Source: Thermoanaerobaculum sp. (lineage in GTDB: Bacteria; Acidobacteriota; Thermoanaerobaculia; Multivoradales; UBA5704). From it: 60,639 nt of DNA. The DNA lies in assembly GCA_021154885.1 (NCBI GenBank), contig JAJKHS010000046.1:1-60639 (forward strand), in the 5' to 3' direction. Positions 1-21,592 of this stretch are shown here, in pieces (the first letter of the stretch is position 1; every line of letters starts with the position of its first letter). Both the position numbers and the translations under genes were made by a program. The notes under the pieces are model-generated. The model saw only the letters and a list, made by a program, of their open reading frames with translations, was not told where the DNA came from and did no database searches.

Positions 1-3000
1 CGAAGCCCGTCAGCGTGTCCACGTACAGGGCCACCCGGCCGCCGCCGCCGCTCGCCCCGTAGTAGGAGACCGCCTGGTAGTCGCCACCCGAGGCGTCGAT
101 CGAACCGGCGCCGCTCATCGCCGCCGCCGTGATCAGCACGCTGCCGCCCGCGCCGCTGGACTCCCCGTGACCCGTCGTCTGCTTGCGCTCGCCCAGCGCC
201 CGGATCTGGCCGTCCAGCACCAGGCTCCCCGCGCTCAGCTCCACCGTGCCGCCGCCGTTGCCCCCCGGCGAGCCCGAGTACTTGTCCGAGCCGCCGCCGC
301 CCCCGAAACGCGGCAGGTAGACGCTGCCGAACACCTCGCCGGGAGGACCCGGGTTGCCCCAGATCGCGCCGATCCCGCCGTGGCTGCCGCCCGAGTCCGA
401 CGCCGAAGCCGTGAAGCCCGCTGGAGCGCTGCCCGGCGCACCCGCCGACTGGCCGCCCAGGTAGCCGAGACTGCTCATGTCGAGCAACGCTCCGCACTGG
501 AGGCGCAGAGCTCCTGTCACCGTCAGGTTGAGCGACTGCCCGGAGAGCCCCACCACCTTGGCACCGTTGAGCAGGGTCAGCGACGCCAGGCTGAGCGGCC
601 CCTGGACCGTGAAGGTGCCGGCGCCGAGGACCAGCGCCTGGCCGTTGCGGGCCGAGGTCAGGTTCTGATTGCCCGTCAGCGGGGTGGTCGACGGCACGGC
701 CAGCGACAGGGTCGCGAAGCCCACGCCGCCGCCGAAGTCGCGCGCTTCGATCCGCACCGTGAAGGTCTGCCCGGGAGCCGCGTTGGCCGGCGGAGTCCAG
801 GTGAAGCTCGCGGACACCGTGGCCTGGTTCACCGTCACGGTCTGCTGCGTGACGCCGTCCACCACCAGCGAGTAGCTCTGGACCGCCTGGTCGTCGGTGG
901 CCGTGAAGGGGATCGTCACCGCCGCGCCGGCTGTCACGAGCTCACCGTTGGCGGGACAGCCGGAGAGGGTCACCACCGGCGCGTTGGGATCGACGACCGG
1001 CTGGACGTGAATCGTGCGGGTCGCCGCGAAGCGGTTCCCCGAGAGGTCCGTGGCCGTCGCCGTGATCACGAGGTCCGTCGCCTGCGTGACCGCCGGAGCC
1101 GTGACCGTCCACGAGTAGGGAGAGGCGGCGACGACGGAGGACTGGCCGTTGAACTGGAACGTCACGTTGCGGATGCCGAGGACGTCCTGCGGCACCGCCG
1201 TCACGGCGAAGTTGGTACCGGCGGTGTAGGTGGCCCCGGCCGCCGGGCTGGTGAGCTGGATCGACGGGGAGTAGCTCTCCGTCCAGCCGGAGCCCGGGGT
1301 GTTCGCGGTGGTCACGCGATCGAGGGCGATCCCCTTGGCGCCGTTGCGCACGGTGACGCTGTTGAAGCGATAGATGCCATCGTAGGAGTCGCCCACGTGG
1401 ACCACGGCCGACAGCGGCGGGGCCGGCACGTTCAGGGTGAGGCTCGTGCCGTGGTGGGTGTGGTCCAGGATGGTGTAGAGCGTGTTGAAGTCGCCGTTGA
1501 AGGCCACCTCGGCCGCGCCGAGGAAGGAGTGGAAGTCGGCCTCGTTGTCCGTGAAGCCGTTGCTCGCCACCGCGTCGATGACGCCGTGGCCCACCACCGG
1601 CAGCTCGGTGTACTGGGCCGAGGCGTTGCCGGCGTTGTCCAGGATCAGGTCGCCCAGGCCTTGAGCGTCGGGCTTGACGAAGATCGTGCCCGCGGCGCCC
1701 CAGGTCGCCGGGTCCGTCGCCGAGGTCCTGCCGCCCACGGCCAGGGTGCGGCCCAGAAGGCCGGAGTCGATGGCCGCGCCGTAGAAGGCGATGCGGCCGC
1801 CGCTGCCGCCGCCGGCCGTGCCGCCGGCGCTGCCGGCGGCCTGGACCGAGCCGGCGCCGCGGAGGGCGGCGGCGTTGAGGCGGATCGAGCCGCCGGCGCC
1901 GCCGGCACCGGACGCGCCGGCCTCGCCGTTGGCCAGCACGGAGCCGTCGATGACGGCGTTGCCGGTGGCGGTGATGCGCACCACGCCGCCGCCATCGCGC
2001 CCCCTGGCGCCGCTGTAGCCGCCGCCGGCCCCGGAGTCGCGCGGATCGTAGAAGCTGCCGTAGACCGGGCTCGAACCGTCGTAGCTGCCGCCGCGGCCAC
2101 CGTAGCCGCCGCCGATGCCCGCGTTGGCGCCCTCGGTCTGGACGTTGCCGAAGCCGTAGGCCCGCGCGCCGGACGCCGAGCTGCCCAGGAAGCCGCGGCC
2201 GGTGACGTCGACCGACCCGGTGCAGGAGACGTAGAGGTCGCGCTGCACCGTCAGGTCGAGCTTCGACTCCAGGGTCGCCGTGGTCTCCGGATGCGTGACC
2301 CTGGCGCCGTCGAGGACCACCAGATCGCGGAAGGTGTGCGGCCCGGTGACGGTGAGGGTGCCGGCCGCGACCACCACGGTCGTGTTGTCGAGCGAGGTGT
2401 CGGTCGCCGAGAGCGTCCGGTCTGCGGTCAGGATGTTGCCCTGCACCACCCGCAGGTCGAGCGTGGTGGTGGCCGTGGTGCCGGTGAAGCTCTTCGCCCG
2501 CGCCGTGATAGTGAGGACCTGACCCTCGGCCGTGCCGGCCGGCACCGTGAAGTGATAGACGAAAGGCGCCTGGAAGTCGGTCGCAAGGAGCGTCGTGCCC
2601 TGGAGGAACTCCACGCGCTCGATGCCGTTGTCGTGGTTGGCCGCCACGTTGAGGTCGATGCCGGTGCCGGGCGCCAGGATCACTCCTGGAGTGGGACACG
2701 AGAAAGCCACCGCGGGAGCCGCGCCCGGCGCCAGCGGACGCACGTGGATCAGCCGGGTCACCGTGGCGTGGTTGTCGTTGGTGTCGACGGCCTCGACGGT
2801 GATGGGCAGGTCGCCCTCGACGTCCACCACCGGCGCGCCGACCGACCAGGTGTATGGCGCGGCCGTGGCCGTGGAGCTCTGGTCACCCAGACGGAAGGTG
2901 ACCGCAGAGACGCCGCGGTCGTCTGTCACCGTGGCCGCGACCTGGACCGTCTGACCCGAGGAGAAGACCGTGCCCGCGGCCGGCTGGGTCACCGTGATCG

Positions 3001-6000
3001 TGGGTGGGGTGAGGTCGTAGAGCGTCAGCGTCGAGCCGGAGGCGACCGTCGAGGAGCCGACCACCGCGCCGTCCAGGAACTGGAGCACGGCCTTGCCCTT
3101 CACGATCACGGCGTCGAATTTGTAAATGCCGACGTAGGTCTGGCCGGCGGTGACCGCGACCGCCGCGCGATCCAGGAGCAGCCGGCGGCGGTCGTCGCTC
3201 TGGGCGAGGACGGAGTAGTCCACGCCGTTGACGCGGACCCACATCCCGACCACGCCGAGATCGAATTTACGGGCCGGGTCCTGCGGCTCGATCCACAGCG
3301 CCGTGGCGTTGCCCGGCTCGGCGTAGACGGCACCCACGATCCCCTTGCCGATGGACGGCGGAGTCGTCGTGCCGGCCGTGCCGGTCGTGGCGCCCTGGTC
3401 CACGAGCAGCGAGCCGTAGGTGTCTCCGGTCTGCTTGTAGAAGATCGTTCCCGGCGCCGCGAAGGAGGTTCCGGTGCCGTCGCTGGGGGCGCCGCCCCGG
3501 GCCTTGACCTGCGATGCCGGGTCGAAGCCGCTCCAGGTTCCCGTCACGATCGACACCCGGCCGCCGCCGCCCGTGGTCACGGCGGGGCAGTGGCCATCGC
3601 CGCCCGAGGCGTCGATCAGGCCGGCACCGCTCACCACCCCGGCCGCGATGGCCACCGTGCCGCCCGCGCCGACGCCGTAGCAGGAGGGCTGGAAGGCACC
3701 CCGCGCCCGGATCTCGCCCGCCAGCGCCAGCTCGCCCGCCGTGATGCGCACCACGCCGCCGCCCGCCGTTCCGATGTTGAGGTTGTTGTAGGCCGCGCCG
3801 CCGCCGCCCGAAAGGCTCGGCGTATAGAGGCTGTCGTAGACCTCGCCCGCCGCGCCGCCGGAGGCGTTGCCGCCCCGGCCGCCGTGGCTGCCGCCCGCCG
3901 ACGGGCTCGTCGAGCCCGCGACGCCCGTAGGCGCATAGCCGTCCACGTGACTGCCGCCGCCCGCCGCGTAGCCCTTCCCCGAAACGTCCAGAAGCCCGCC
4001 GGACGCCACCGTCAGCTTGCCGGTCAGGGTCAGCCGCAGCTCGCTGCCGCGCGCCGGCCGCACCGTCGCCCCGCCCAGCACCTCCGCCGTCGCGCCCGTC
4101 ACCTCGCCGGCCAGCGCCGCGGCGCCACTGTCGAAGACGGTGTCCGCCGAGGCGAGCGGGTCCTGGGCGTCGACGCCCGCTCCGTTCTTCAGCTCGACGC
4201 GGTCGAACCGGTACTCGCCCTGCCAGGTGGCGGCACCCGTCACCGTCCCCGCGCCGGCCAGCCGCACGCGGCCGGCGCCGTCGAGCTCCGCCACCTGGAA
4301 GGCTCCCAGGTCGGTACCGGCGGAGTTTCTGAGGCGCATCCACGCGCCGACCCACTTGGTCAGGAAGGCCGGCGAGGCGCTCACCCAGAGATCGCCGCTC
4401 GAAACCGCCGTCGCCGTCACCGCGCCGCCGCCCAGGACCGGCAGCTCCGTCGCCAGGCTCACCCGGTCGACCCCCGCGACCTCTCCGGCGTCGATCAGCA
4501 GCGCGCCGTAGGTGTCCCCGGTCTTCTTGTAATAGATCGTCCCGGGCGACGCCGCCGACGTGCCGGCGCCGTCGCTCGGGCTGCCGCCCCAGGCCTTCAC
4601 CTGGGAGGCCGGGTCGAAGCCGTTCCAGGTCCCGGTGACGATCGACACCCGGCCGCCGCCGCCCGTCGTCACGGCCGGGCAGTGACCATCGCCGCCCGAG
4701 GCGTCGATCAACCCGGCACCGCTCACCACCCCGGCCACGACGGCCACCGTGCCGCCCGCGCCGACGCCGTAGCAGGAGGGCTGGAAGGCACCCCGCGCCC
4801 GGATCTCGCCCGCCAACGCCAGCTCGCCCGCCGTGATCCGCACCACGCCGCCGCCCGCCGTGCCGATGTTGAGATTGTTGTAAGCCGCGCCGCCGCCGCC
4901 CGACTGGCTGGGCGCGTAGACGCTGTCGTAGACCTCGCCCGCCACGCCGCCGGACGCGTTGCCGCCCCGGCCGCCGTGGCTGCCGCCCGCCGACGGGCTC
5001 GTCGAGCCCGTCACGCCCGTGGGCGCATAGCCGTCCACGTGACTGCCGCCGCCCGCCGCGTACCCCTTCCCCGTAACGTCCAGGAGGCCGCCGGACGCCA
5101 CCGTCAGCTTGCCGGTCAGAGTCAACCGCAGCTCGCTGCCGCGGGCCGGCCGCACGGTCGCTCCGCCCAACACCTCCGCCGTCGCGCCCGTCACTTCGCC
5201 GGCCAGCATCGCGGCGCCACTGTCGAAAACGGTATCCGCCGAGGCCAGCGGATCCTGGGCGTCGACGCCCGCTCCGTTCTTCAGCTCCACGCGGTCGAAC
5301 CGGTATTCGCCCTGATACGTCGCGGCACCCGTCACGGCCGCCGCACCGCTCAGCCGCACCCGGCCGTTGCCATCCAGCTCCGCCACCTGGAAGGCCCCCA
5401 GGTCGACCCCACCGGTGCTCCTGAGGCGCATCCACACACCCACCCACTTGGCCAGGAAGGCCGGCGAGGCGCTCACCCAGAGATCGCCGCCCACGACCGC
5501 CGCCGCCGCTACCGTGCCGCTGCCCAGGACCGGCAGCTCCGTCGCCAGGCTCACCCGGTCGACGCTCCCGACTTCCCCGGCGTCGATCAGCAGGGCGCCG
5601 TAGGTGTCGCCCGTCTTCCGGTAGTAGATCGTTCCCGGCGCGGCAGCCGACGTGCCGCTGCCGTCGCTGGTGCTGCCGCCCCACGCCTTCACCTGCGTCG
5701 CCGGATCGAAGCCGTCCCATGTCCCGGTCACGATCGACACCCGGCCGCCGCCGCCCGAGGTCACGTTCGGGCAGTGGGTGTCGCCGCCCGAGGCGTCGAT
5801 CAGGCCGGCGCCGCTCACCACCCCGGCCGCGATCGACACCGTGCCGCCCGCGCCCACGCCGTAGCAGGTAGCGGCCTGGGCGCCCCGCGCCCGGATCTCA
5901 CCCGCCAGCTCCACCTGGCCCGCCTCGATGTGCACCACGCCGCCGCCGGCCGTGCCGACGTTGAGGTTGTTGTAAGCCGCGCCGCCGCCGCCCGACTGGC

Positions 6001-9000
6001 TGGGCGCATAGACGCTGTCGTAGACCTCGCCCGCCACACCGCCGGTGGCGTTGCCGCCCCGGCCGCCGTGGCTGCCGCCCGCCGTCGGGCTGGCCGACCC
6101 CGTCACGCCCGCGGGGGCGTAGCCGTCCAGATGGCTGCCGCTGCCCGCCGCATAGCCCCGGCCCGTCACGTCCAGCCGCGCGCCGGCCTCGATGGTCAGG
6201 CGCCCCGGAGTGACGATCCGCAGCTCCTCTCCCGAGGCCGGGCTCACCACGGCGCCGCTCTTGACCCGCACGTTGGTCGCGGTGATGGCGCCGCTGACCT
6301 GGGCGTTGCCCTCCAACACCAGCTCGGGACCGACGATCGGGTCCGTCGCCCGCAGGCCGGCGCCGCTCTTGAAATCGATGCGGTCGAAGCGGTACTCGCC
6401 CTTGAAGGTCGCGGGGCTTGCCGCTGCCGCCGCACCCTGGAGACGAAGCCGCCCGGCGCCGTCGATCGACGCCACGGGGAACACTCCCAGGTCCGTCCCG
6501 CCGCTGTTCAGCAGATGCACCCAGACGCCCAGCCACTTCGCGGCGAAGGGCGCGCCCGCGCTCACCCACAGATCGCCGCCCGCGACCTCCGTGGCGGTGA
6601 TGGACCCGCTGCCCAGCCCCGGCAGGTCTGTCGTCAGGCTCACCCGGTCGGTGCCGTTGACCTTGCCGGAGTCGACCAGCAGGGCGCCGTAGGTGTCGCT
6701 CGCCTGCCGGTAGTAGATCGTCCCCGGCGCCGCGGCCGAGGTGCCGGTGCCGTCGTTGGTGCCGCCGCCCCAGGCCTTCACCTGCGCCACCGGATCGAAG
6801 CCGTCCCACGTCCCCGTCACGATCGACACCCGGCCGCCGCCGCCCGTGGTCACGTTGGGACAGTGGGTGTCGCCACCCGAGGCATCGATCGAGCCGGCGC
6901 CGCTCACCACCCCGGCCGCGATCGACACCGTGCCGCCCGCTCCCACGCCATGGCAGGAGGGCTGCAAGGCACCCCGCGCCCGGATCTCGCCCGCCAGCTC
7001 CACCTGGCCCGCCTCGATGTGCACCATGCCGCCGCCGGCCGTGCCGACGTTGAGGCTGTCGTAGGCCGCGCCGCCACCGCCCGACTGGCTGGGCGCGTAG
7101 ACGCTGTCGTAGACCTCGCCCGCCACACCGCCGCTGGCGTTGCCGCCCCGGCCGCCGTGACTGCCGCCCGCCGACCGGCTCGTCGACGCCGTAACTCCCG
7201 CCGGGGCGTAGCCGTCCACGTGGCTGCCGCCGCCCGCCGCGTAGCCCAGGCCCGTCACGTCCAGCCGCGCCCCCGCCTCGATCGTCAAACGGCCCGGGGT
7301 GACGATCCGCAGCTCCCCGCCCGCGGCGGGACGCACCACGGCGCCGCTCTTGACCCGCACGCTGGCCGCGGTGATCGCGCCGCTGACCTCGGCGTTGCCG
7401 TCGAGCACCAGCTCCGGCCCGACCACCGGATCGGCCGTCTGCACGCCCGCGCCGTTCCTGAGATCCATACGGTCGAACCGGTACTCGCCCTGCCAGGTGG
7501 CCACGCCGGCCGCGCCGGCCGCGCCCGCCAGACGCAACCGGCCGGCGCCATCGATCTCTGCCACGGGGAAGACCCCGAGATCCGCTCCGCCGGAGCCGTA
7601 GAGGTGAACCCAGACTCCCAGCCACTTCACGGCGAACCCTGCCGAGGAGCTCAGCCACAGGTCGGCCCCCGCGACCTGCGTCGCCGTCGCCGCGCCGCTG
7701 CCCAGCGCCGGCAGCTCCGTCGCCAGGCTCGCCCGGTCGACGCCGCCGATCTCCCCGGCGTCGATCAGCAGGGCGCCGTAGGTGTCGCCCGTCTTCTTGT
7801 AGTAGATGGTCCCCGGCGCCGCCGCCGACGTGCCGGTGCCGTCGCTCGTGCCGCCGCCCCAGGCCTTCACCTGGGAGGGGGGATCGAAGCCGTTCCAGGT
7901 CCCCGTCACGATCGACACCCGGCCGCCGCCGCCCGTGGTCACCGCAGGGCAGTGGGTATCGCCACCCGAGGCGTCGATCGAGCCGGCGCCGCCGACCACC
8001 CCGGCCACGATCGCCACCGTGCCGCCCGCGCCCACGCCATGGCAGGAGGGCTGCAAGGCACCCCGCGCCCGGATCTGACCCGCCAGCGCCAGCTCTCCCG
8101 CCGTGATCCGCACCACGCCGCCACCCGCCGTGCCGACGTTGAGATTGTTGTAGGCCGCGCCGCCGCCGCCCGCCTGATGCGGGGCGTAGACGCTGTCGTA
8201 GATCTCGCCCGCCACGCCGCCGGAGGCGTTGCCACCCCGGCCGCCGTGGCTGCCGCCCGCCGACGGGCTCGTCGAACCCATGACTCCCGCGGGAGCGTAG
8301 CCATCCACGTGGGAACCGCCGCCGGCCGCGTAGCCGAGGCCGGTGACGTCGATCCCAGAACCGCAGGCGACCTCCACCAGCCCGCCGGCGGTGAGGTCCA
8401 CCGCTCCCCCGGCCACCGACTTCAGGGTCACGCCCTGGAGGATCAAACCGCCCATATGGAGAGGCACATTGACCGTCACCGTTCCCTTGGAGAGGAAGAC
8501 CGTCTGGCCGGCGTAGACGTCGGTCAGCGTGAGGTCGCCCTTCAGCGCCGCGCCCGCGACGACCGTCACGGCGACCTCGGCGGAGGCGACGTTGCCTGCA
8601 AAGTCGCGGGCCTCGAGGTGCAGGGTCAGTACGTCGCCGGCCGCCGCCGTGGCGGGCACCGTCCAGGGCGCGGACGCGGCGACATCCGCGCTGTCCGCGA
8701 GGGGTACGTCGGCGAGAGCCGTGCCGTTGACCGTCAGCTTGTAGCTCTCGATCCTCTCGTCATCCGTCATGTGGAAGGGGAGGTCGAGCTCGGCGCCGGG
8801 CACCACGTGCCGGGCGAAGCAGCCGAGCGTCACCTGCGGCGGATGGGTGTTGGACCGCGGCAGGACGTGGACGGTGCGAACGGCGGCCACGTGGTTGCCC
8901 CAGGCGTCCACCGCCTCGAGCTGCAGGGCCACGTCGGTGGGTGCCGTCACGACCGGCACCGGCACGCTCCAGGAGTACGGAGCCTGGCTGTCCACCAGCA

Positions 9001-12000
9001 CCCAGCGCCCGGTGCTCAGGGCCACGGAAGCCACCCCGGCGGGGTCCACCACCGTGGCACTCACCGTCATCCGGTCGCCCGAGGTGAAGGTGGCCCCCTC
9101 GGCCGGCAGGACGCTCGAGATGACAGGCGGCGTCGTATCCACGGTGAAGAAGGTGGTCACGAAGGGCGTCGCCATCGCGTTGCCCACCCGGTCGGCCACC
9201 CCCTGGAGGGTGAGCTGGTAGGCGTGGCCGTCGATCAGCGCGGCCACCGGGTTCACGGTCACCGTCCGCGCCGCCGTGTCGAGCTGGAAGGTGGTGGTGA
9301 CCCCTGCTCCCGCGGTAACGTCCTGAAGGACCATGTGGGTGCCGGACAGCGAGAACAGGTCGACCGGCTCGTTGAACATCACCCGGATCTGGGCGGCGAG
9401 CGAAACCTGCCTGGCGTTGTTGGCCGGGCTCACCTCGATGACCACCGGCGGCAGCACGTCGGCGGTGGTGAAGCTGGTCTGCACCGACTGGTCGAGGCGG
9501 CGGCCCGCGACGTCGAAGAGCTGCTCCGCCGACACCTTGATGCGATAGGTCGTGAAGTTCTGCAGCGGCTGGTACGGCGCGATCCGGATGGCCGTGTTGC
9601 CGTCGATCCAGGTATTGTTGGCACCCACCCACTGGCCCGCCGCCGTCTCGATGTGAACCACGTTGCCCACCAGGTTGCGGGCGGTGTCCATGGCCTCGCT
9701 GAAGCGGACGACCGGCTGGGTATTGAGCGGCAGGTCCACGGCGCCGTTGGCCGGCGTGATCTCCGTCACCCGCGGGCTCACGGCGTCGAGGACGACGGTG
9801 CCGAGGTCGAGGATCTGGCCGTTGGTCGACAGGCTGCCGCGGATCTCCCGCATGCCGGGGCCGAAGCTCTCCTGGAAGACGAGCAGGAAGCCGCCCATGG
9901 GGACCGACGGCAGGCTGAAGACGCCGGCGTCGTCGGTGAAGGTGGTGAGGGTGCGGCCGGCGATCTGCAGGGCCACCAGGGCATTGGCCGCCGCCGTCGT
10001 GCCATCGGCCTTGACCACCGTGCCGCGGATCTGGGCCGAATTCTCCAGCGCCAGGTTGACCTGGACGATCTCCCCTTCGTGGGTCAGCACGGCGCTGGCG
10101 GAGCCCCGCAGGCCGGTGGCGGGGTTGGTGGCGAAGGCCGTCACCCCGCCCTCGCCGACGTTCTGGAAGGTGATGGAGTTGTCGGTGCCGGTGTCCCCCA
10201 CCAGTCGCTTCCAGCCATAGAAGCCGTTGTTGATCACCTCGATGCTGGCGGCGTTGACCGGGTTGCCGAAGCTGTCGCGGACGTTGACCACCACCGAGCC
10301 GATGGGGTGGATGCGCACGTCGATGCGCACGGGGCCCTGGTCGGTGAGGTTGCCCCAGGTCTCGCCGCGGTGCGGCCCGCCGATCTCCTGGGTCTCCAGC
10401 CAGAACGGATGCCCGAGGATGACGCCGTTGAACTCGTAGGTGCTCTCCAGCGTGGCGCCGATGTTCAGGCCGTCCTGCTGCAACACGGTGTTGGCATTGG
10501 GGAAGACGCCGTCCGGCGAGCCCAGCGGGTTGAGCACGCTGCCGTTGACCGTGCCCTGCCGCTCGAGGAACAGGTCGAGGCTCACCCGCTGCCCTTCGCT
10601 GACGATCTCGCCCCGGCCGTTGGCCACCCGCCGCCCCCCCGGCTCGCGGCTGAAGAGGTCGAACCTGCCCTGGGGGATGCCGAGGAACTCGAAGAAGCCG
10701 TCCGCCCCAGTGCTGCTGTAGGTCGAGAAGCCGACCAGGCCGGAGGAGCCCAGCCGCACGGTCGCGCCCGGGATCGCCACCGTGCTCCCCGGCTCGTAGA
10801 GGTGGCCATCCACGGCGCCCCGGGCCTCGAGCTCGAAGTCGCCCTGCAGCACCTGGTTGTTCTGACTGAGCTGCAACCCGTTGCGCCGGCCATGGCGGCC
10901 GGTGCGGGGGTCGAGGGCCTGGACGTCGTAGACCGCCATGGGCAGGAGATTGAACTCGAACTTGCCGTCGGCGTCGGCGTTGATGGTGTCGAAGAGCCCT
11001 CCCCAGCGCAGGAGCTGGACTTCGGCCGAGGCCGCCGGCGAGCCGTCGCCGGGGTTGGTGATCCGCCCCTGGATCTTCCCTGTGGGTTCGAGGAAGATCG
11101 TGACTCCCGCCACCTCCTCGCCTTCCGCCTTGATCTCCACCGTCGTCTTGCCGCCGAGGCCGCCGAGCGAAGGCGCCCGCGCCGAGAGGGTCACCGTGCC
11201 GGCGAAGATGTTGTGGAACTCGAAGTTGCCGTCGGCGTCGGCGTTGACGACCAGGGTGCGGTGCGGGTAGGAGCCCTCCTGCAGGGTCACCACCGAGCCG
11301 GCGATGAGCTGGCCGTTGGCGTCCGACACCCGGCCGGAGATCGATCCCTGCTTGGGGAGCACGATCTCGAGGTCGAGCTCCTGACCCTTCTGGTTGAAGC
11401 GCACCCAGGCCTCGACCTTGCGGAAGACGACGCCGTTCTCCCACGTCACGTCCACCGGGAAGGCCCACGGCGTGGGCGGCACCAGCTCGAAGCTGAAGCG
11501 CCCGTCGGCGTTGGTCAGCATGTCGTTGGCGAGGCTCGGGTGCTTGAGCTCGACCTTTGCCCCCTGGACAGGGGTGACGCCGTCCTGATCGAGCACCCGG
11601 CCCTTGATGGTGCCGGTGAGGTTGCGCTCGAAGAGGACATTCTGGGTCTGGCTCTCGCCATTCTCCACCAGCTCGCCGCGAATCGTCTTGCTGCCATAGA
11701 AAGAGTTGGAGACCGTGATGACGTAGGGTCCCACCAGGGCCTCGGGGATTGCCCAGGAGCCGTCCGCCTGGGTGGTGATCGTGTGCGCCTCCAGGTCGAG
11801 CCCCACCAGTTCCAGGCGCACGGCCGTGGTGCGGTAGGTCACGAGCGCGGTGACGCCGACCGGCTGGCCCGAGTCGTTCTCCGCCTGCACGACGCCGTGG
11901 ATCGACCCTCTCTTGAAGCGGATGGAGACGAACGGCGTGTCGCCGAGGAAGCGCACCAGGGCGCCCGCGGTGCCGCCCGCCGCACCCTTGAAGGCGTGCA

Positions 12001-15000
12001 CGCCGTAGCCGCCCACCCCCAGGTTGGGGATGGAGAAGCGGCCGGAGGAGTCGGTGGTGGCCGTGCGATACCAGTGCTGGTCGTCCGCCGCCAAGTGGAC
12101 GGTGGCGCCCACCACCGGGCCGCCGTCGAAACCCAGGACCTCGCCGGCGATGCCCCCCACGATGCTCGCGTCCTGGAAGTAGAAGTTCTTGTCGACGACC
12201 TGCCCCTCGACGCCGATGGTCACGGCCTCGCTGAGCTTGACTTTCTTGTCGAGGTCGGCGGCGGAGATGTTGCGGGTGCCCGCGAACACGCCCTCCAGGA
12301 CGTAGTGGCCTTGCGGGTCGGTGACCGTCTTGAACGGCGTCCCCTCGGCCCAGACGATGACTCCGAACATGGGCACGTCCGCACCGTTGACCTTCTTGTA
12401 GACGAAGCCCTGGACCACGCCGCGCTGGTCGCGCATCGTGAGGTTGACCTGGTTGACCTGGTCAGGGTGGATGGTGAAGAAGACCTGGACGCCCGACTGG
12501 CCGGTCTGGTTCTCGAAGGTCTCGATCTCGCCGCGGCCGGCTGGCACGGATCCGAAGTCGAAGGTGCCGTCGGTGCCGCTGCGCCGCGTCCCCACCAGGT
12601 TGCCGTCGGTGTAGAGGGCCACGTAGGCACCGGCCACCGTGGTGGCGCCGTCCGGCCGGAAGATGGTGCCCCGCACCGTGCCGTTCGCCACCGGCTGGTC
12701 CGGCCGGCGCAGGATGACGAGGTCGTGCTGGACGACGCTGCCGGCTTCGGGGACCAGGACCGTCTTCACCACGAACCGCCCCTGGCCGTCGCTGGCTGAA
12801 AGGGTGATGGTGCCCACGGCGACGTCGCTCACCGCGTAGTTGCCGTTGGCGTCCGGCTTGACGGAGGTCCCCTCGCGGAACACCGGGCTCTCGGCGATCA
12901 CCCGCGCATTCGCCGGCACCGTGCCATCGTCGTAGGTGACGCGGCCGCGGAGGGTGCCGCGGCCGAGCATCACCACGTTGAGCGTCGCGTGCTGGCCGAC
13001 GAAGCGCACCCGCCCCGTGGCCGTGCCGCTGCGGCCGGTGCCGGCGTCGATCCCCTTGAGCGAGAAGATGTCGCTGCAATCGGTCTGGCGGACATAGTCG
13101 AAGAGGAAGGAGCCGGAGGCGTCGGCGCGCACCACGGCCGTTTTGTGTGTCCGGCAAGACTCCTCGCAGAAGAGGCACCGGTCGCTCTCCCGCAGCTCGA
13201 CCTCGGCGAACGGCACGGGCTTGCCGTCGGGGCCGTAGACCGTGCCTTGCACCAGGGTGCCGGGCATGGCCGTGTTCGGGATACGCACCCGCACGGTGGT
13301 GGAGACCACCTGCTCGCCCAGCGGATTCTTCACTCCCGCCACGGTGAGGTCCTGCGGCGTGTAGGGGCTCAGGGGGTTGTTGAAGACGACCCGCACGATG
13401 CGCGAGTTGCGCATTCCCTTGAAGGGGTTCTGGACGGTGTTGCCCGAGCCGTCCATCACGTCGTCCTCGCCCTGCACCCAGCCGCCGTTGGAGACCTTGT
13501 TGGGAATCGTGAAGTGGCGGGGATCGGCCGGCGACAGGCTGGCCGGGTCGACGTCGGTGGTGAACAGGACCTCGGCGACGTGGCCCGTGGGGTCCACCTC
13601 GGTGTTCAGCACCGCGGCGATGGCCTGGAACGGCCGCCGCTGCAGGGTCTCGACGGTGCCGGGGACCTGGTCGTCCACCGTGCCGTCGCCCTGGGTGTCC
13701 ACCTGCAGGACGAAGGAGGAGTCCGCGGCCCGGAACGCCGCCACGGCGACGCCGCCGGCGGCGAGGGAGACGTTGTCCCAACGCACCAGGCGCAGGCCGC
13801 CGTCCGTCCCCGGCACCAGGACGTGGAGCCCGGCGGAGACGGCCGAGGAGGCGCGAAGGCGGGCCTCGTACCCTCCCGCTTCGGGGACGGTCATCACCGC
13901 CATCTGGGCGCCGGTGCCCAGGGCGTAGAGGTCGGCGAACGGCAGCTCCCGCAGGCGGGTGGCGTCGTTGCCTCCGCCCCGCAGCCGCTGGCCGCCGGTG
14001 CGGCTGGCGATCTCCAGGCTCACTCCCTCACCCGTCGCCAGGGCGCCCTGGAGCGCCGGCAGGTAGCCGGTGGTCCTGGCGAAGCGTTCGAAGGCCTGCG
14101 CCGGAGAGGTGGCCGCGGCCTCGGCCGCGAACACCGCGCCCAGAGAGGCGCCCACCCGGGCTCCCTTCTGCGTCGTCCGCCGCAGCAGGTCCCACTCCCA
14201 GTCGCCGTCCCTGGACCCGTTCCACTCCGCGGCGAGCTCGGCCGCGCTGTCGAACAGGTTCTCGCCGAAAGCCACCTGGCGGCCGGCCTGGGAGAGCTGG
14301 TAGACCCGGCTGTCGACCATCGAGCGCGAGACCCGCGGCAGGTCCGCCCGTAGCAGCGAGGGGGGAGCCGTGGCCAGCGAGAAGCCGAGGCCGATCAGGT
14401 TGAGGGAGTTGCGCACCAGGTCCGGCGGCAGCGAGTCCGTGGCCCGGGGGAGGATGATGGAGGTGGGCGACAGCGGGATGCCGTTCTCCCCCACCCCCAC
14501 CGTCAGCTCGAAGGTGGGCGTGATCTCGCTGGAGCTGCGGGCCGCCGTGGCCACCACCCGGCCCGTGCGCTTCGAGCGCAGGCGGAACTCCAGCAGCTCG
14601 GCGTCGCCGGGGAGGATGGTGACCGTCTGCTCGTTGACCCCCACCACCTCGACCCCGGTCAGCTTGTCGAGGGGGAGCCGGACCTTCAGCAGGTTGGCCG
14701 GCGCCGTGCCGGTGTTGGTGACGGTGAGGAGCAGCGAGTACTCCTCGTCCGTCCGCACCACGTCGGGGTGGGTGATGGTGACGTTGAGGGTGGGATCGCG
14801 GACGATGACGGCGCCCTTGGCCGTGCCGGTGACCCGCCGGAGCTGGCCGTCGGGCAATCCGTGGAGCACCCCTTCGAGGTCGAACTGGACGATGTGCGTC
14901 CCCTCGCGCAGCCCCTCGACCAGCACCTCGGCCTGCCCGGAGGCCTGAGCCACCAGGAAGGTCAGGTCGTCGGCCGTGCCCAGCTTGCCGTCCGGGCCCG

Positions 15001-15982
15001 GCACCCGCACCGGCACCGGCACGCCGAGCGGCGTCGGCGGGTCCGTCTTCGCCTGGCGCAGGCCCGGCGGCAGGGTCACCCGCGCCGTCAGGTCGTGGAT
15101 CTCCAGCCGGTCCCCCGCCGGGGCGCCGTTCTGGGCGATGAGCATCACCGAGAAGAACTGGTGCAGCAGGCTGACGTCGGTGGGGAAGAGGATGACGCCC
15201 GGAATGGGCACCACCTCGCTTTTCGAGCAGTCGCCGTCGGCGGACTCGCAGCCGCCGTTGGACTGGTCGCCTCCGTCCCCGTTGTCGAACGAGAGCTGGA
15301 ACGGCGCCATCCGCGGCGGCTCGAAGTGGGCCGAGGAGGAGTGCCAGGCCGGCGCGTCGAAGTTCGTCAGGCCGTCCCAGAGGATGTACGGGTCCTTGGC
15401 CGGCCCCATGTAGATGACCGGGATGTTGTAGTTGATCGTCTCGCCCGCCACCGCGAAGGCGAAGGTGAAGTTGAAGGCCTGGAAGCTGTCGTCGTTGACG
15501 ACGATGCCGTAGCTGCGGATCTCGTCCAGGGTGAGGGCGCGGGAGGTGACCCTGGTGATCAGCACCTGGGTCACCCGCACCGCCGCCGAGCGCGGCTCGG
15601 CGTAGGCCAGCAGGTCGCTGCCCTGCATCAGGCGGATGTTGTCCAGCCGGTATTCCCCCTCCAGCCGCAGACGGGGGATGCGGAAGGGCTGATTGGGAAC
15701 CGTCTCCAGGACCAGGATGCCGTTGACCTCCGGGCCGGTGAAGTCCGCCACCACCCGCAGGTCCTTGGGCAGCACGCCGCGCTCGACGTCGTACCCTTCG
15801 AGATGGGTGTCGACGATCGTGGGCGTGTCGAAGGGGACGGTCTGGCTCTCGGGAGAGACCGTGAGCCGGCTGCCGGCGATCAGCAGCCGCGCGTTCGCCA
15901 GGTCGGCAGCGCCGGCCAGCCCCGGCGCGAGCAGGGCGAACCCGAGGCCAGCCAGCAGTCGTAGAGATCGCTTCCCGCTCAT
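1..15982 (-). CDS. Giant secreted multi-domain surface protein (3' end beyond window)
   Basis: The frame from ATG at 15982 has no stop to base 1, so the product exceeds 5,327 residues and its C-terminus is outside the window. GGGAG lies 5 nt before the ATG and the first ~26 residues form a signal peptide (KRSLRLLAGLGFALL...AGAA). In order: a beta-rich N-terminal region; a DUF11/CARDB-like stretch near residues 395-460; about 13 carboxypeptidase-regulatory-like units (GxVxxxxGxPVxGAxVxL) from about residue 905 to 2065, bases 13260-9790; two Big_5-type Ig units (SPANNARQVSL) and a Big_9-like unit at 9790-9000; then glycine-rich repeats (GGSHGGRGGNASGG...GGGVVRITAG) to the edge, interrupted by Ig-like segments near 2950-2500 and 1300-800. 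This is probably an adhesin or cell-surface stalk protein. Its function is inferred from domains only. Confidence 0.9.
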   Translation of the reverse strand, partial: MSGKRSLRLLAGLGFALLAPGLAGAADLANARLLIAGSRLTVSPESQTVPFDTPTIVDTHLEGYDVERGVLPKDLRVVADFTGPEVNGILVLETVPNQPFRIPRLRLEGEYRLDNIRLMQGSDLLAYAEPRSAAVRVTQVLITRVTSRALTLDEIRSYGIVVNDDSFQAFNFTFAFAVAGETINYNIPVIYMGPAKDPYILWDGLTNFDAPAWHSSSAHFEPPRMAPFQLSFDNGDGGDQSNGGCESADGDCSKSEVVPIPGVILFPTDVSLLHQFFSVMLIAQNGAPAGDRLEIHDLTARVTLPPGLRQAKTDPPTPLGVPVPVRVPGPDGKLGTADDLTFLVAQASGQAEVLVEGLREGTHIVQFDLEGVLHGLPDGQLRRVTGTAKGAVIVRDPTLNVTITHPDVVRTDEEYSLLLTVTNTGTAPANLLKVRLPLDKLTGVEVVGVNEQTVTILPGDAELLEFRLRSKRTGRVVATAARSSSEITPTFELTVGVGENGIPLSPTSIILPRATDSLPPDLVRNSLNLIGLGFSLATAPPSLLRADLPRVSRSMVDSRVYQLSQAGRQVAFGENLFDSAAELAAEWNGSRDGDWEWDLLRRTTQKGARVGASLGAVFAAEAAATSPAQAFERFARTTGYLPALQGALATGEGVSLEIASRTGGQRLRGGGNDATRLRELPFADLYALGTGAQMAVMTVPEAGGYEARLRASSAVSAGLHVLVPGTDGGLRLVRWDNVSLAAGGVAVAAFRAADSSFVLQVDTQGDGTVDDQVPGTVETLQRRPFQAIAAVLNTEVDPTGHVAEVLFTTDVDPASLSPADPRHFTIPNKVSNGGWVQGEDDVMDGSGNTVQNPFKGMRNSRIVRVVFNNPLSPYTPQDLTVAGVKNPLGEQVVSTTVRVRIPNTAMPGTLVQGTVYGPDGKPVPFAEVELRESDRCLFCEESCRTHKTAVVRADASGSFLFDYVRQTDCSDIFSLKGIDAGTGRSGTATGRVRFVGQHATLNVVMLGRGTLRGRVTYDDGTVPANARVIAESPVFREGTSVKPDANGNYAVSDVAVGTITLSASDGQGRFVVKTVLVPEAGSVVQHDLVILRRPDQPVANGTVRGTIFRPDGATTVAGAYVALYTDGNLVGTRRSGTDGTFDFGSVPAGRGEIETFENQTGQSGVQVFFTIHPDQVNQVNLTMRDQRGVVQGFVYKKVNGADVPMFGVIVWAEGTPFKTVTDPQGHYVLEGVFAGTRNISAADLDKKVKLSEAVTIGVEGQVVDKNFYFQDASIVGGIAGEVLGFDGGPVVGATVHLAADDQHWYRTATTDSSGRFSIPNLGVGGYGVHAFKGAAGGTAGALVRFLGDTPFVSIRFKRGSIHGVVQAENDSGQPVGVTALVTYRTTAVRLELVGLDLEAHTITTQADGSWAIPEALVGPYVITVSNSFYGSKTIRGELVENGESQTQNVLFERNLTGTIKGRVLDQDGVTPVQGAKVELKHPSLANDMLTNADGRFSFELVPPTPWAFPVDVTWENGVVFRKVEAWVRFNQKGQELDLEIVLPKQGSISGRVSDANGQLIAGSVVTLQEGSYPHRTLVVNADADGNFEFHNIFAGTVTLSARAPSLGGLGGKTTVEIKAEGEEVAGVTIFLEPTGKIQGRITNPGDGSPAASAEVQLLRWGGLFDTINADADGKFEFNLLPMAVYDVQALDPRTGRHGRRNGLQLSQNNQVLQGDFELEARGAVDGHLYEPGSTVAIPGATVRLGSSGLVGFSTYSSTGADGFFEFLGIPQGRFDLFSREPGGRRVANGRGEIVSEGQRVSLDLFLERQGTVNGSVLNPLGSPDGVFPNANTVLQQDGLNIGATLESTYEFNGVILGHPFWLETQEIGGPHRGETWGNLTDQGPVRIDVRIHPIGSVVVNVRDSFGNPVNAASIEVINNGFYGWKRLVGDTGTDNSITFQNVGEGGVTAFATNPATGLRGSASAVLTHEGEIVQVNLALENSAQIRGTVVKADGTTAAANALVALQIAGRTLTTFTDDAGVFSLPSVPMGGFLLVFQESFGPGMREIRGSLSTNGQILDLGTVVLDAVSPRVTEITPANGAVDLPLNTQPVVRFSEAMDTARNLVGNVVHIETAAGQWVGANNTWIDGNTAIRIAPYQPLQNFTTYRIKVSAEQLFDVAGRRLDQSVQTSFTTADVLPPVVIEVSPANNARQVSLAAQIRVMFNEPVDLFSLSGTHMVLQDVTAGAGVTTTFQLDTAARTVTVNPVAALIDGHAYQLTLQGVADRVGNAMATPFVTTFFTVDTTPPVISSVLPAEGATFTSGDRMTVSATVVDPAGVASVALSTGRWVLVDSQAPYSWSVPVPVVTAPTDVALQLEAVDAWGNHVAAVRTVHVLPRSNTHPPQVTLGCFARHVVPGAELDLPFHMTDDERIESYKLTVNGTALADVPLADSADVAASAPWTVPATAAAGDVLTLHLEARDFAGNVASAEVAVTVVAGAALKGDLTLTDVYAGQTVFLSKGTVTVNVPLHMGGLILQGVTLKSVAGGAVDLTAGGLVEVACGSGIDVTGLGYAAGGGSHVDGYAPAGVMGSTSPSAGGSHGGRGGNASGGVAGEIYDSVYAPHQAGGGGAAYNNLNVGTAGGGVVRITAGELALAGQIRARGALQPSCHGVGAGGTVAIVAGVVGGAGSIDASGGDTHCPAVTTGGGGRVSIVTGTWNGFDPPSQVKAWGGGTSDGTGTSAAAPGTIYYKKTGDTYGALLIDAGEIGGVDRASLATELPALGSGAATATQVAGADLWLSSSAGFAVKWLGVWVHLYGSGGADLGVFPVAEIDGAGRLRLAGAAGAAGVATWQGEYRFDRMDLRNGAGVQTADPVVGPELVLDGNAEVSGAITAASVRVKSGAVVRPAAGGELRIVTPGRLTIEAGARLDVTGLGYAAGGGSHVDGYAPAGVTASTSRSAGGSHGGRGGNASGGVAGEVYDSVYAPSQSGGGGAAYDSLNVGTAGGGMVHIEAGQVELAGEIRARGALQPSCHGVGAGGTVSIAAGVVSGAGSIDASGGDTHCPNVTTGGGGRVSIVTGTWDGFDPVAQVKAWGGGTNDGTGTSAAAPGTIYYRQASDTYGALLVDSGKVNGTDRVSLTTDLPGLGSGSITATEVAGGDLWVSAGAPFAAKWLGVWVHLLNSGGTDLGVFPVASIDGAGRLRLQGAAAAASPATFKGEYRFDRIDFKSGAGLRATDPIVGPELVLEGNAQVSGAITATNVRVKSGAVVSPASGEELRIVTPGRLTIEAGARLDVTGRGYAAGSGSHLDGYAPAGVTGSASPTAGGSHGGRGGNATGGVAGEVYDSVYAPSQSGGGGAAYNNLNVGTAGGGVVHIEAGQVELAGEIRARGAQAATCYGVGAGGTVSIAAGVVSGAGLIDASGGDTHCPNVTSGGGGRVSIVTGTWDGFDPATQVKAWGGSTSDGSGTSAAAPGTIYYRKTGDTYGALLIDAGEVGSVDRVSLATELPVLGSGTVAAAAVVGGDLWVSASPAFLAKWVGVWMRLRSTGGVDLGAFQVAELDGNGRVRLSGAAAVTGAATYQGEYRFDRVELKNGAGVDAQDPLASADTVFDSGAAMLAGEVTGATAEVLGGATVRPARGSELRLTLTGKLTVASGGLLDVTGKGYAAGGGSHVDGYAPTGVTGSTSPSAGGSHGGRGGNASGGVAGEVYDSVYAPSQSGGGGAAYNNLNIGTAGGGVVRITAGELALAGEIRARGAFQPSCYGVGAGGTVAVVAGVVSGAGLIDASGGDGHCPAVTTGGGGRVSIVTGTWNGFDPASQVKAWGGSPSDGAGTSAASPGTIYYKKTGDTYGALLIDAGEVAGVDRVSLATELPVLGGGAVTATAVSSGDLWVSASPAFLTKWVGAWMRLRNSAGTDLGAFQVAELDGAGRVRLAGAGTVTGAATWQGEYRFDRVELKNGAGVDAQDPLASADTVFDSGAAALAGEVTGATAEVLGGATVRPARGSELRLTLTGKLTVASGGLLDVSGKGYAAGGGSHVDGYAPTGVAGSTSPSAGGSHGGRGGNASGGAAGEVYDSLYTPSLSGGGGAAYNNLNIGTAGGGVVRITAGELALAGEIRARGAFQPSCYGVGAGGTVAIAAGVVSGAGLIDASGGDGHCPAVTTGGGGRVSIVTGTWSGFDPASQVKARGGAPSDGTGTSFAAPGTIFYKQTGDTYGSLLVDQGATTGTAGTTTPPSIGKGIVGAVYAEPGNATALWIEPQDPARKFDLGVVGMWVRVNGVDYSVLAQSDDRRRLLLDRAAVAVTAGQTYVGIYKFDAVIVKGKAVLQFLDGAVVGSSTVASGSTLTLYDLTPPTITVTQPAAGTVFSSGQTVQVAATVTDDRGVSAVTFRLGDQSSTATAAPYTWSVGAPVVDVEGDLPITVEAVDTNDNHATVTRLIHVRPLAPGAAPAVAFSCPTPGVILAPGTGIDLNVAANHDNGIERVEFLQGTTLLATDFQAPFVYHFTVPAGTAEGQVLTITARAKSFTGTTATTTLDLRVVQGNILTADRTLSATDTSLDNTTVVVAAGTLTVTGPHTFRDLVVLDGARVTHPETTATLESKLDLTVQRDLYVSCTGSVDVTGRGFLGSSASGARAYGFGNVQTEGANAGIGGGYGGRGGSYDGSSPVYGSFYDPRDSGAGGGYSGARGRDGGGVVRITATGNAVIDGSVLANGEAGASGAGGAGGSIRLNAAALRGAGSVQAAGSAGGTAGGGSGGRIAFYGAAIDSGLLGRTLAVGGRTSATDPATWGAAGTIFVKPDAQGLGDLILDNAGNASAQYTELPVVGHGVIDAVASNGFTDNEADFHSFLGAAEVAFNGDFNTLYTILDHTHHGTSLTLNVPAPPLSAVVHVGDSYDGIYRFNSVTVRNGAKGIALDRVTTANTPGSGWTESYSPSIQLTSPAAGATYTAGTNFAVTAVPQDVLGIRNVTFQFNGQSSVVAASPYSWTVTAPAVTQATDLVITATATDLSGNRFAATRTIHVQPVVDPNAPVVTLSGCPANGELVTAGAAVTIPFTATDDQAVQSYSLVVDGVTQQTVTVNQATVSASFTWTPPANAAPGQTFTVRIEARDFGGGVGFATLSLAVPSTTPLTGNQNLTSARNGQALVLGAGTFTVQGPLSLASLTLLNGAKVVGLSGQSLNLTVTGALRLQCGALLDMSSLGYLGGQSAGAPGSAPAGFTASASDSGGSHGGIGAIWGNPGPPGEVFGSVYLPRFGGGGGSDKYSGSPGGNGGGTVELSAGSLVLDGQIRALGERKQTTGHGESSGAGGSVLITAAAMSGAGSIDASGGDYQAVSYYGASGGGGRVALYVDTLTGF
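3390..8350 (-). repeat. Five tandem 363/364-codon repeats inside the giant gene
   Basis: The GYAAGGGSHVDGYAP-type motif recurs with anchors at 8330, 7241, 6152, 5060 and 3968, spacings of 1089, 1089, 1092 and 1092 bp. Every spacing is a multiple of three, so the frame is kept. Each unit runs from the Gly-rich segment through an IEAGQVELAGEIRARG-type beta segment, TGTWDGFDP, GTIYYKKTGDTYGALL, and a YRFDR motif before the next Gly-rich segment. The fifth unit ends early, near 3390. Two diverged copies of the Gly-rich segment follow near 2180 and 470. The near-identical DNA suggests recent internal duplication or homogenisation. Confidence 0.92.
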
Positions 15983-20362: not shown

Positions 20363-21592
20363 ATGAAACGAGCCAAGTTCACTTCAAGAGTTAAGAAAAC
20401 TTTGGCAGGCCGGGCCGGTCACAAGTGTAGCTATCCTGAGTGCGGGAGGGGCACTAGCGGACCAGGTGTTTCTACTAGCGAAGTCGCGATCACAGGAGAT
20501 GCAGCTCACATCTACAGCGCCGCTGATCGGGGCCCTCGTGGTCGCGGGGGACTTTCCATCTCAGAGCTCACAGACGTGAAGAATGGGATCTGGCTTTGCG
20601 CTGAGCACCATCGCCTTATTGACCTCAATCGCGGCGACCGCTTCCCTCCGGAAACTCTCAACGGCTACAAGGATCGGCATGAGCGTCGAATTGCAAAGGA
20701 ACAAGGGTACCTACCATTTAGAGAAGTAGAAGAAATTTACATTTCCTGTAGCAGCGTCTTTGCAGACGACACAGTTCTCCGGCTGAGCAAGGTAATGCTG
20801 ATAGTAGGGAGCAATGGCACGGGAAAGACTTTCCTTTTCCGACTTCTGAACAGTCTATCGAATGAACCTAGGTCAAAGTTGGGCAGTCTTTTTAGGGAAG
20901 AAGAGAATCTATCCTATTCCATACGCTTGTCTAATCCTGAACACCAAGTCAGATTCAGTGGCGTTGGAAATCAAGTAACGCTTTCGCTCGATGGAGCTGC
21001 TGTACCCTTTAATCCTTTGACGGTAGCTATCTTTTTTGAGGAGGAACGCACACGCCTCCAGCCGCTGGAGAACTTTTTGAGAAGCAAACGCTCGAAGTTA
21101 GACTCTGAACCTCCGGACGATCTTCTTTTGCTTTCGGAGTATTGGGAGATAGAGCCCGATCTTGTGAGAAAGCTCGTCGCCAAGGCGGGAACATTTGTTG
21201 AACATGCCTTCAATAATCCGCGTTTTGAAGTAGCCATGGGAGTTAGTCGGCTACTTGTAAACGACAAGCGTTGGCGACCAGACGCATCCATTCATAAAAT
21301 TTCAGGAGGCATGCTGGAAATGCTATCGCTAGACGTGGCCATCGCGTATGCTATGCACATGTCGGAACATCATCCAACAATGTTGCTCCTAAATACTGGA
21401 TTTCTCCATCTAGACCATAATCATATGGGGCGCTATGTCGATTTCCTGCTGTCGAATGAGGTTAAATTTCAGACATTGATAGCGACGTGCAGTTTCAATC
21501 CGGAGTATCGTAAAATCCCATGGGAAATAGTTCACATCAGACGAGTTGGAGGTAAGTCGATTGTTGAGCTGGAACAAGCTGGAGAGTTTTGA
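20363..21592 (+). CDS. HNH endonuclease-ABC ATPase fusion, candidate defence protein
   Basis: The 409-residue protein has two domains. The N-terminal HNH nuclease has zinc-type ligands C22, C27, C79 and H82 and catalytic-type H49 (DAAHI), N74 and H83 (NGIWLCAEHHRLID). The C-terminal SMC/ABC-type ATPase has Walker A GSNGTGKT at 149-156 and signature ISGGMLEM at 313-320. Walker B reads TMLLLNTG, with N344 and T345 where Asp and Glu are expected, and the H-loop His is C376 (IATCSFN), so hydrolysis may be impaired. The DNA is clearly AT-richer than its surroundings: a sample line at 21361 is 40% GC against 75% at 16441. A TIR gene follows after 24 bp. The pairing recalls Septu (PtuA ATPase plus PtuB HNH), but here the parts are fused and joined to TIR. 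Confidence 0.85.
   Translation: MKRAKFTSRVKKTLAGRAGHKCSYPECGRGTSGPGVSTSEVAITGDAAHIYSAADRGPRGRGGLSISELTDVKNGIWLCAEHHRLIDLNRGDRFPPETLNGYKDRHERRIAKEQGYLPFREVEEIYISCSSVFADDTVLRLSKVMLIVGSNGTGKTFLFRLLNSLSNEPRSKLGSLFREEENLSYSIRLSNPEHQVRFSGVGNQVTLSLDGAAVPFNPLTVAIFFEEERTRLQPLENFLRSKRSKLDSEPPDDLLLLSEYWEIEPDLVRKLVAKAGTFVEHAFNNPRFEVAMGVSRLLVNDKRWRPDASIHKISGGMLEMLSLDVAIAYAMHMSEHHPTMLLLNTGFLHLDHNHMGRYVDFLLSNEVKFQTLIATCSFNPEYRKIPWEIVHIRRVGGKSIVELEQAGEF

What the first reader, a model, noticed from the sequence alone, without database searches (positions are those of the whole stretch)
1..15982. Secreted protein of more than 5,300 residues with homogenised 363/364-residue repeats
One stop-free frame joins about 13 carboxypeptidase-regulatory-like units, Ig-like domains and five tandem glycine-rich units at spacings of 1089, 1089, 1092 and 1092 bp. 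The Gly-rich GGSHGGRGGNASGG / GGGVVRITAG motif may form a beta-solenoid. Repeat number may vary and change the length of a surface fibre.
Basis: partly seen in the sequence, partly recalled or inferred. Interest (0 to 1): 0.6.

Follow-up and report, generated by a model that had tools for sequence, protein, structure and literature searches.

The report
Giant rod protein beside toxin gene
A bacterium that most likely belongs to the phylum Acidobacteriota carries a very large protein partly built of repeated, probably rod-shaped blocks, and its gene sits directly in front of a giant gene for a shell-packed, toxin-like protein, an arrangement kept in relatives that hints the two work together.

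Summary
One stop-free minus-strand frame (15982 to 2; 5,327 aa) carries 12-13 carboxypeptidase-regulatory-like domains, Ig-like domains and five tandem 363/364-aa Gly-rich units. The window is a whole contig that breaks inside the gene; another contig holds the last 612 aa, giving at least 5,871 aa and 8 units. The unit has no Pfam, NCBIfam or PHROG match. AlphaFold2 gives one unit pLDDT 95, and two in tandem pTM 0.85 with strands through the junction, which supports a rod with side barrels. 'Homogenised' is only partly right: whole-unit dS is 0.34-0.51, and mosaic. Unit number differs between species (0-7 in 11 complete relatives).

Such a neighbour follows in 18 of 18 own-order loci that can be judged (Rhs repeats themselves seen in 11) and in 11 of 16 elsewhere in the phylum. 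Four Verrucomicrobia-type loci hold Gly unit and Rhs in one frame. Best reading: an exported scaffold or adhesin partner of an Rhs polymorphic toxin. The partnership is inferred, not shown.

The parts
2..15982 (-). giant gene (gene 1), 5,327 aa inside the window, continues on contig C22 for 612 aa to a stop
13283..15982 (-). conserved N-terminal module, about 900 aa, starting with a Sec-type signal peptide (read by eye)
   Evidence: first 1000 aa in 21 of 59 own-order genomes, own included; first 900 aa in 31 of 297 phylum genomes, own included; no NCBIfam or PHROG match
9881..13249 (-). array of 12 detected (13 by spacing) carboxypeptidase-regulatory-like domains, aa 912-2034
   Evidence: PF13620 1e-67, 9 stretches; iterated profile
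9128..9787 (-). two Big_5 Ig-like domains (best stretch aa 2066-2173; the second placed by position only)
   Evidence: PF13205 1.4e-35, 2 stretches
7349..8437 (-). Gly-rich unit 1 (363 aa)
6260..7348 (-). Gly-rich unit 2 (363 aa)
5168..6259 (-). Gly-rich unit 3 (364 aa), mosaic: 5' end like unit 2, second half like unit 4
4076..5167 (-). Gly-rich unit 4 (364 aa), modelled: pLDDT 95.2, pTM 0.94
2984..4075 (-). Gly-rich unit 5, with a different second half that by eye resembles the end of the protein's last unit on C22
1238..2290 (-). diverged Gly-rich unit 6
   Evidence: E 9.7e-24; groups with a unit of G011, not with units 1-5
2..565 (-). partial Gly-rich unit 7 cut by the contig end; its last 205 bp match the end of contig C22 200/205

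Best explanation
Gene 1 encodes a giant exported scaffold or adhesin (5,871 aa or more). A conserved N-terminal module comes first, then an arm of 12-13 carboxypeptidase-regulatory-like and several Ig-like domains, then rods made of tandem beta-helix units that each carry a small side barrel. It is the dedicated partner of the gene that follows: a giant exported Ig plus Rhs/YD-repeat protein whose shell would hold a variable C-terminal toxin. The pair would act between cells: gene 1 anchors, displays or binds, and gene 2 carries the toxin. The number of rod units would tune reach. Shown: anatomy, gene order and its conservation, unrelated tails of gene-2 relatives. Predicted: fold and rod. Inferred: export of both, co-function, surface location, role of length.
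For: Gene order: gene 2 starts 8 bp after gene 1's stop. A gene-2 relative is the next giant frame in 18 of 18 own-order loci (own included) with gene 1's end and downstream DNA on the contig; the Rhs repeats themselves are on the contig in 11 of the 18. In the phylum sample 20 loci were fetched; 4 run off their contig or the fetched stretch, and 11 of the other 16 have a gene-2-like frame downstream, with Rhs repeats found by search in 4 of the 11. Of 36 loci from a scan for the Gly unit alone, 4 (L069, L070, L077, L078; L069 and L078 are from one genome bin) hold Gly unit and Rhs in one frame. Gene 2: RHS_repeat 4.3e-77, Ig, LVIVD; YD repeats and Rhs core above NCBIfam cut-offs. Of 8 complete tails of gene-2 relatives (own included), 1 of 28 pairs is alike at E<=1e-3; two of the eight carry domains above Pfam cut-off: WHH plus colicin-DNase, and Stv. 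Fold.
Against: No test shows that the two products touch or are co-expressed. 7 of the 18 own-order cases rest on gene 2's N-terminal, Ig-rich part only, and in 7 of the 11 phylum cases the search found no Rhs repeats; Ig similarity can inflate such matches. 5 of 16 phylum loci have the N-terminal module without gene 2 next. Gene 1 can lack Gly units in the own order (G046, G024:C56: 0 units), so the rods are not needed for the pairing. No secretion or anchoring device beyond a Sec-type start was found; Pfam finds nothing in the last 612 aa. Our gene 2's own tail has no Pfam match even at E<=10, and 5 of the other 7 tails have nothing above cut-off. No immunity protein was tested. How often Rhs genes stand next to other giant frames was not measured as a control.
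Confidence: 0.5

Rival explanations
1. Gene 1 is a general surface, sheath or biofilm adhesin. It sits next to gene 2 because both are large surface proteins under one promoter; it has no part in toxin delivery.
For: CPD and Ig domains are common adhesin parts (general knowledge); closest folds of the tandem are adhesin beta-helices; 5 of 16 phylum loci lack gene 2; gene 2's N-terminal half is also Ig-rich.
Against: Adjacency in 18 of 18 own-order loci and four frames that join Gly unit and Rhs in another phylum.
Confidence: 0.3
2. The rods bind or process polysaccharide: a beta-helix with an inserted barrel, as in GH110 enzymes, used to hold on to or degrade cell walls of prey or plant matter.
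For: Foldseek E 7.3e-4 to GH110A for the tandem model, the only PDB match below 0.001; GH110 rows at Z 6.5-7.2, for a single unit 175 residues at rmsd 7.3 (7jw4_B).
Against: TM-scores 0.10-0.16 and rmsd 12.6-14.2 A for the tandem pairs; Z in the range the tool calls middling; no Pfam enzyme family in the unit; catalytic residues not examined.
Confidence: 0.12
3. The array is an assembly or annotation artefact: mis-joined repeats or a broken gene.
For: The contig ends inside a repeat, and its overlap with C22 has 5 mismatches in 205 bp.
Against: No stop in 5,327 aa; units 1-5 differ by 18-40% so they are not collapsed copies; other genomes show the same architecture and gene order.
Confidence: 0.05

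Closest known systems
Rhs/YD polymorphic toxins and bacterial teneurin-like proteins (TLPs; PMC13018210: outline and abstract, sections 6 and 10, and found passages read)
   Same: Gene 2: Sec-type start (by eye), N-terminal adhesion-type domains, LVIVD repeat, YD/Rhs repeats, Rhs core; in relatives variable C-terminal tails and short frames downstream.
   Different: Gene 2 is 4,568 aa and preceded by a giant conserved partner. The parts of the paper that I read name no such partner and say there is no obvious delivery machinery. Pfam's teneurin YD-shell model scores 25.6 bits against a cut-off of 50.
Two-partner secretion adhesins (EtpA, HMW1 type)
   Same: Beta-helix neighbours of the tandem model; giant exported repetitive protein.
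   Different: No TPS-type domain in Pfam at E<=0.01 in the first 1000 aa; the N terminus is another, conserved module; a barrel partner gene was not searched for.
Giant1-5 of Apilactobacillus kunkeei (PMC12863079, start of abstract in a search listing only)
   Same: Extracellular proteins of 3,000-8,000 aa in consecutive genes.
   Different: Other phylum; no toxin neighbour is mentioned in the text seen.
PE_PGRS proteins (PMC7550000, search listing only)
   Same: Gly-rich repetitive exported protein.
   Different: No PE domain found; 363-aa units with a predicted folded barrel.

Membership tests
Rhs/YD polymorphic toxin (gene 2) | RHS/YD repeats above curated cut-off | tested here: met
   PF05593 253.7 bits, cut-off 22; TIGR01643 101.1, cut-off 15.8
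Rhs/YD polymorphic toxin (gene 2) | Rhs-associated core before the tail | tested here: met
   TIGR03696 73.6 bits, cut-off 32.5
Rhs/YD polymorphic toxin (gene 2) | C-terminal tails unrelated between relatives | tested here: met
   16 loci read, 8 complete tails found by a core motif, 1 of 28 pairs at E<=1e-3; three of the eight (G009, G045, G015:C218) are Rhs relatives not shown to stand next to gene 1
Rhs/YD polymorphic toxin (gene 2) | cognate immunity gene downstream | tested here: inconclusive
   short frames follow several gene-2 copies; none was tested as immunity
bacterial teneurin-like protein (gene 2) | teneurin YD-shell | tested here: not met
   PF25023 25.6 bits, cut-off 50
bacterial teneurin-like protein (gene 2) | FN-plug and NHL propeller | tested here: inconclusive
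   none listed at E<=0.01 in Pfam; an LVIVD stretch is present; whether the library holds teneurin FN-plug and NHL models was not checked
two-partner secretion adhesin (gene 1) | N-terminal TPS domain | tested here: not met
   Pfam scan of the first 1000 aa lists only CarboxypepD_reg at E<=0.01
two-partner secretion adhesin (gene 1) | outer-membrane TpsB partner | not tested
   no search made
autotransporter (gene 1) | C-terminal beta-barrel domain | tested here: not met
   Pfam finds no family at E<=0.01 in the last 612 aa
PE_PGRS | PE domain | tested here: not met
   none in Pfam at E<=0.01 in the window part or the C22 part

The most novel reading that the evidence does not exclude
The giant rod protein is the missing display or delivery partner of Rhs, teneurin-like toxins in Acidobacteriota: a two-protein contact-killing machine without type VI secretion, whose reach is set by the number of beta-helix units.
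Probability: 0.3. Interest if true: 0.82.

Novelty: new variant of a known kind. Interest (0 to 1): 0.58.

Why it matters
How exported teneurin-like Rhs toxins reach a target is open; the paper on bacterial teneurins says no delivery machinery is obvious (PMC13018210, section 10). A conserved giant gene directly in front of such a toxin-like gene gives a concrete candidate partner that can be deleted and tested. The Gly-rich beta-helix unit is also a confidently predicted domain, found in loci of several phyla, that Pfam, NCBIfam and PHROGs did not match.

Tried and rejected
A 27,346-aa open frame in G009 looked like a giant fusion; it is an artefact, as the stretch fetched holds 72,000 bases read as N. 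One search used an out-of-frame query and is ignored; one search is the correct one. Recent whole-unit homogenisation was tested and rejected: dS 0.34-0.51. Lower dS in the Gly core (0.18-0.43) than in the barrel (0.27-0.97), in 9 of 10 pairs, fits partial gene conversion, but codon constraint on Gly was not excluded. G023's two paralogous genes pair unit by unit, 7 of 7, in the tree, so there is no homogenisation there. PDB sequence searches gave nothing credible. Foldseek on one unit: no PDB match at E<=0.001; one viral match at 9.8e-5 with TM 0.28 and rmsd 16.4, not pursued. PADLOC: nothing at E<=0.01 for the three pieces given.

Rows and loci left out. L045:7908-10157 was dropped from the tandem alignment because it aligned one unit out of register. 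Own-order loci not counted for gene order because gene 1 runs off the contig: G028:C238, G012:C314, G024:C40, G044:C689, G033:C251, G008:C1, G018:C71, G045:C156, G016:C220, G040:C286, G041:C88, G040:C29, G012:C488, G008:C317, G044:C470, G001:C1181 (3,366-bp contig). G020 has gene 1 in broken frames and no gene 2 before the DNA ends; G013 has only a 50-aa match, fetched but not analysed. G016:C88 and G016:C145 were counted although their gene-1 ends or gene-2 frames look frame-broken. Of the places listed, 20 were fetched; G111:C1, G276, G337, G063, G078, G194, G246:C10, G100, G125, G269, G277 and G072 were not.

Literature searches. Their listings show no paper on this gene pair or Gly unit; most listed papers were not opened.

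Full report
WHAT IS THERE. It opens with a Sec-type signal peptide (read by eye; no predictor run). Pfam gives a carboxypeptidase-regulatory array, Big_5 and Big_7 domains; an iterated profile finds 12 such repeats at mostly about 90-aa spacing, with room for a 13th near aa 1813. Five tandem units of 363, 363, 364, 364 and 364 aa follow, plus a diverged copy and a partial copy at the edge.

THE REST OF THE GENE. The window is the whole contig C46 (60,639 bp) of an 8.2-Mb, 161-contig genome. Its end overlaps the end of contig C22 by 205 bp, 200 identical, and the five differences leave the protein unchanged. C22 supplies 612 aa, 68 of them in the overlap, up to a stop. By overlap the protein is 5,871 aa with 8 units; if the overlap hides a second near-identical unit, it is longer. 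Contigs of relatives also often end inside this gene.

WHO CARRIES IT. The closest named loci are Acidobacteriota; two are labelled Thermoanaerobaculia (L047, L048). Own included, the unit occurs in 14 of 59 own-order genomes, the first 1000 aa in 21 of 59, and the first 900 aa in 31 of 297 genomes drawn from the phylum. Matches to the Gly-rich half reach Verrucomicrobia, Myxococcaceae, Chloroflexi and others.

THE UNIT. 43 aligned units share 14 invariant columns, all Gly. Against Pfam the first member has no match even at E<=1; over the 43 members two families appear, one member each, at E 0.019 and 0.11. There is no NCBIfam or PHROG match and no credible PDB sequence match. AlphaFold2 on unit 4 with 61 rows: pLDDT 95.2, pTM 0.94. 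Two units with 11 rows: pLDDT 83, pTM 0.85, strands continuing across 331-394 at pLDDT 86-97, while Gly loops within 40-76 and 404-440 are mostly below 50. The tandem's best structural neighbours are beta-helices: EtpA Z 10.4 (rmsd 5.7, 263 aligned), HMW1 Z 9.8 (5.7, 252), IcsA Z 8.1 (6.7, 233); the tool warns that such Z can be generic for repeats. Plain Foldseek puts only GH110A below E 0.001, at TM about 0.1. Residues 245-318 match a small barrel in the lambda tail tip, Z 8.3 (rmsd 2.3, 67 aligned), with many V-ATPase barrels close below.

HOMOGENISATION. Whole-unit dS is 0.34-0.51 and dN 0.12-0.36, so the copies are not recent. In the tree units 1-5 form one fully supported clade apart from all other genomes, while the diverged unit 6 groups with a unit of G011 and the last unit stands apart; so units 1-5 expanded in this lineage. 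By segment the array is mosaic: unit 3 is like unit 2 at its 5' end and like unit 4 in its second half, which fits unequal recombination. The Gly core has lower dS than the barrel in 9 of 10 pairs, which fits partial conversion but may reflect codon constraint. Units per complete gene in relatives: G046 0, G024:C56 0, G011 1, G007 2, G024:C154 2, G015 3, G029 3, G016:C88 4, G016:C145 5, G023 7 and 7. Within-species variation is untested.

THE NEIGHBOUR. Eight bp after gene 1's stop starts a 4,568-aa gene: Ig-like domains, a CPD domain, LVIVD, RHS repeats and an Rhs core, and a tail with an HHxPxK segment (my reading; no Pfam match). A gene-2 relative is the next giant frame in 18 of 18 own-order loci that can be judged: own, G046, G015, G029, G016:C145, G016:C88, G016:C124, G007, G011, G041:C48, G024:C154, G024:C56, G023:C25, G023:C45, G028:C92 and G045:C231, G040:C132, G012:C129. 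In 11 the Rhs repeats are on the contig (in G023:C25 in a separate frame). In six (G041:C48, G024:C154, G024:C56, G045:C231, G040:C132, G012:C129) the contig ends first, and in G011 the frame stops about 1.2 kb before the contig end without an Rhs match; these seven rest on gene 2's N-terminal part. In G023 and G016:C88 the gap is 0.9-2.3 kb. In the phylum sample 20 loci were fetched and 16 can be judged: 11 have a gene-2-like frame (G091, G124, G123, G217, G287, G108, G099, G170, G097, G087, G246), with Rhs repeats found by search in G091, G287, G099 and G087; five do not (G111:C9, G313:C4, G313:C8, G268, G086). Separate support: of 36 loci found by scanning for the Gly unit alone, four hold Gly unit and Rhs in one frame (L069, L070, L077, L078).

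POLYMORPHIC TAILS. Of 16 loci read, 8 give complete tails after an Rhs core motif used to find them. Beyond it they differ: 1 of 28 pairs is alike at E<=1e-3 (own and G016:C88, 25% over 161 aa). Of the 7 other than ours, Pfam finds WHH (31.0 bits, cut-off 25.1) and colicin-DNase (26.9, cut-off 25) in G016:C88, Stv in G009 (43.7, cut-off 24.2), hits below cut-off in G046 (lipase) and G015:C218, and nothing in three. Short frames follow several copies. This is the pattern described for polymorphic toxins (PMC3482391, abstract start and passages seen; PMC13018210, abstract, sections 6 and 10 and passages read).

READING. The most likely role of gene 1 is an exported scaffold or adhesin that works with a teneurin-like Rhs toxin. 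Shown: anatomy, order, conservation, tail diversity. Predicted: fold and rod. Inferred: that they act together, at the surface, with rod number setting reach. Gene 1 without Gly units still has the neighbour, so the rods look like an adjustable part and the N-terminal module like the constant part.

VERDICT. The repeats alone would be an ordinary giant-adhesin feature; the conserved toxin-like neighbour makes the locus worth testing.

Noticed in passing
L009:1880-15586 (contig C22), minus strand: 4,568-aa Ig plus Rhs/YD gene whose tail segment with an HHxPxK motif matches no Pfam family, followed by a short frame that may be its immunity gene.
   Followed up: partly
C-terminal ends of gene 1: 9 of 12 gene-1 C-termini listed end in proline; the three exceptions are G046 and two loci with suspect frames (G016:C88, G016:C145). 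Could be the end of the solenoid or a signal.
   Followed up: no
L094 (G046), downstream of gene 2: A second short Rhs core with another tail follows gene 2, like an orphan toxin cassette.
   Followed up: no
L072 (Myxococcus xanthus AM003) and L060 (Corallococcus exercitus AB043A): Named strains carry giant frames with Gly-rich units, so the domain may be open to study in cultured bacteria.
   Followed up: partly
window 20363-21592 +: 409-aa frame whose start reads like an HNH-type motif and whose middle reads like an ATPase P-loop (by eye); no Pfam match at 1e-5.
   Followed up: no
window 39890-41707 +: Hybrid histidine kinase with MEDS, HisKA, HATPase and receiver domains.
   Followed up: no
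window 2984-8437: Two Cys in each of units 2-5 and three in unit 1, at like positions and mostly absent from the relatives' rows shown; a possible disulphide.
   Followed up: no
G016 (contigs C145, C88, C124): One genome carries three copies of the gene pair; the two tails seen differ.
   Followed up: partly
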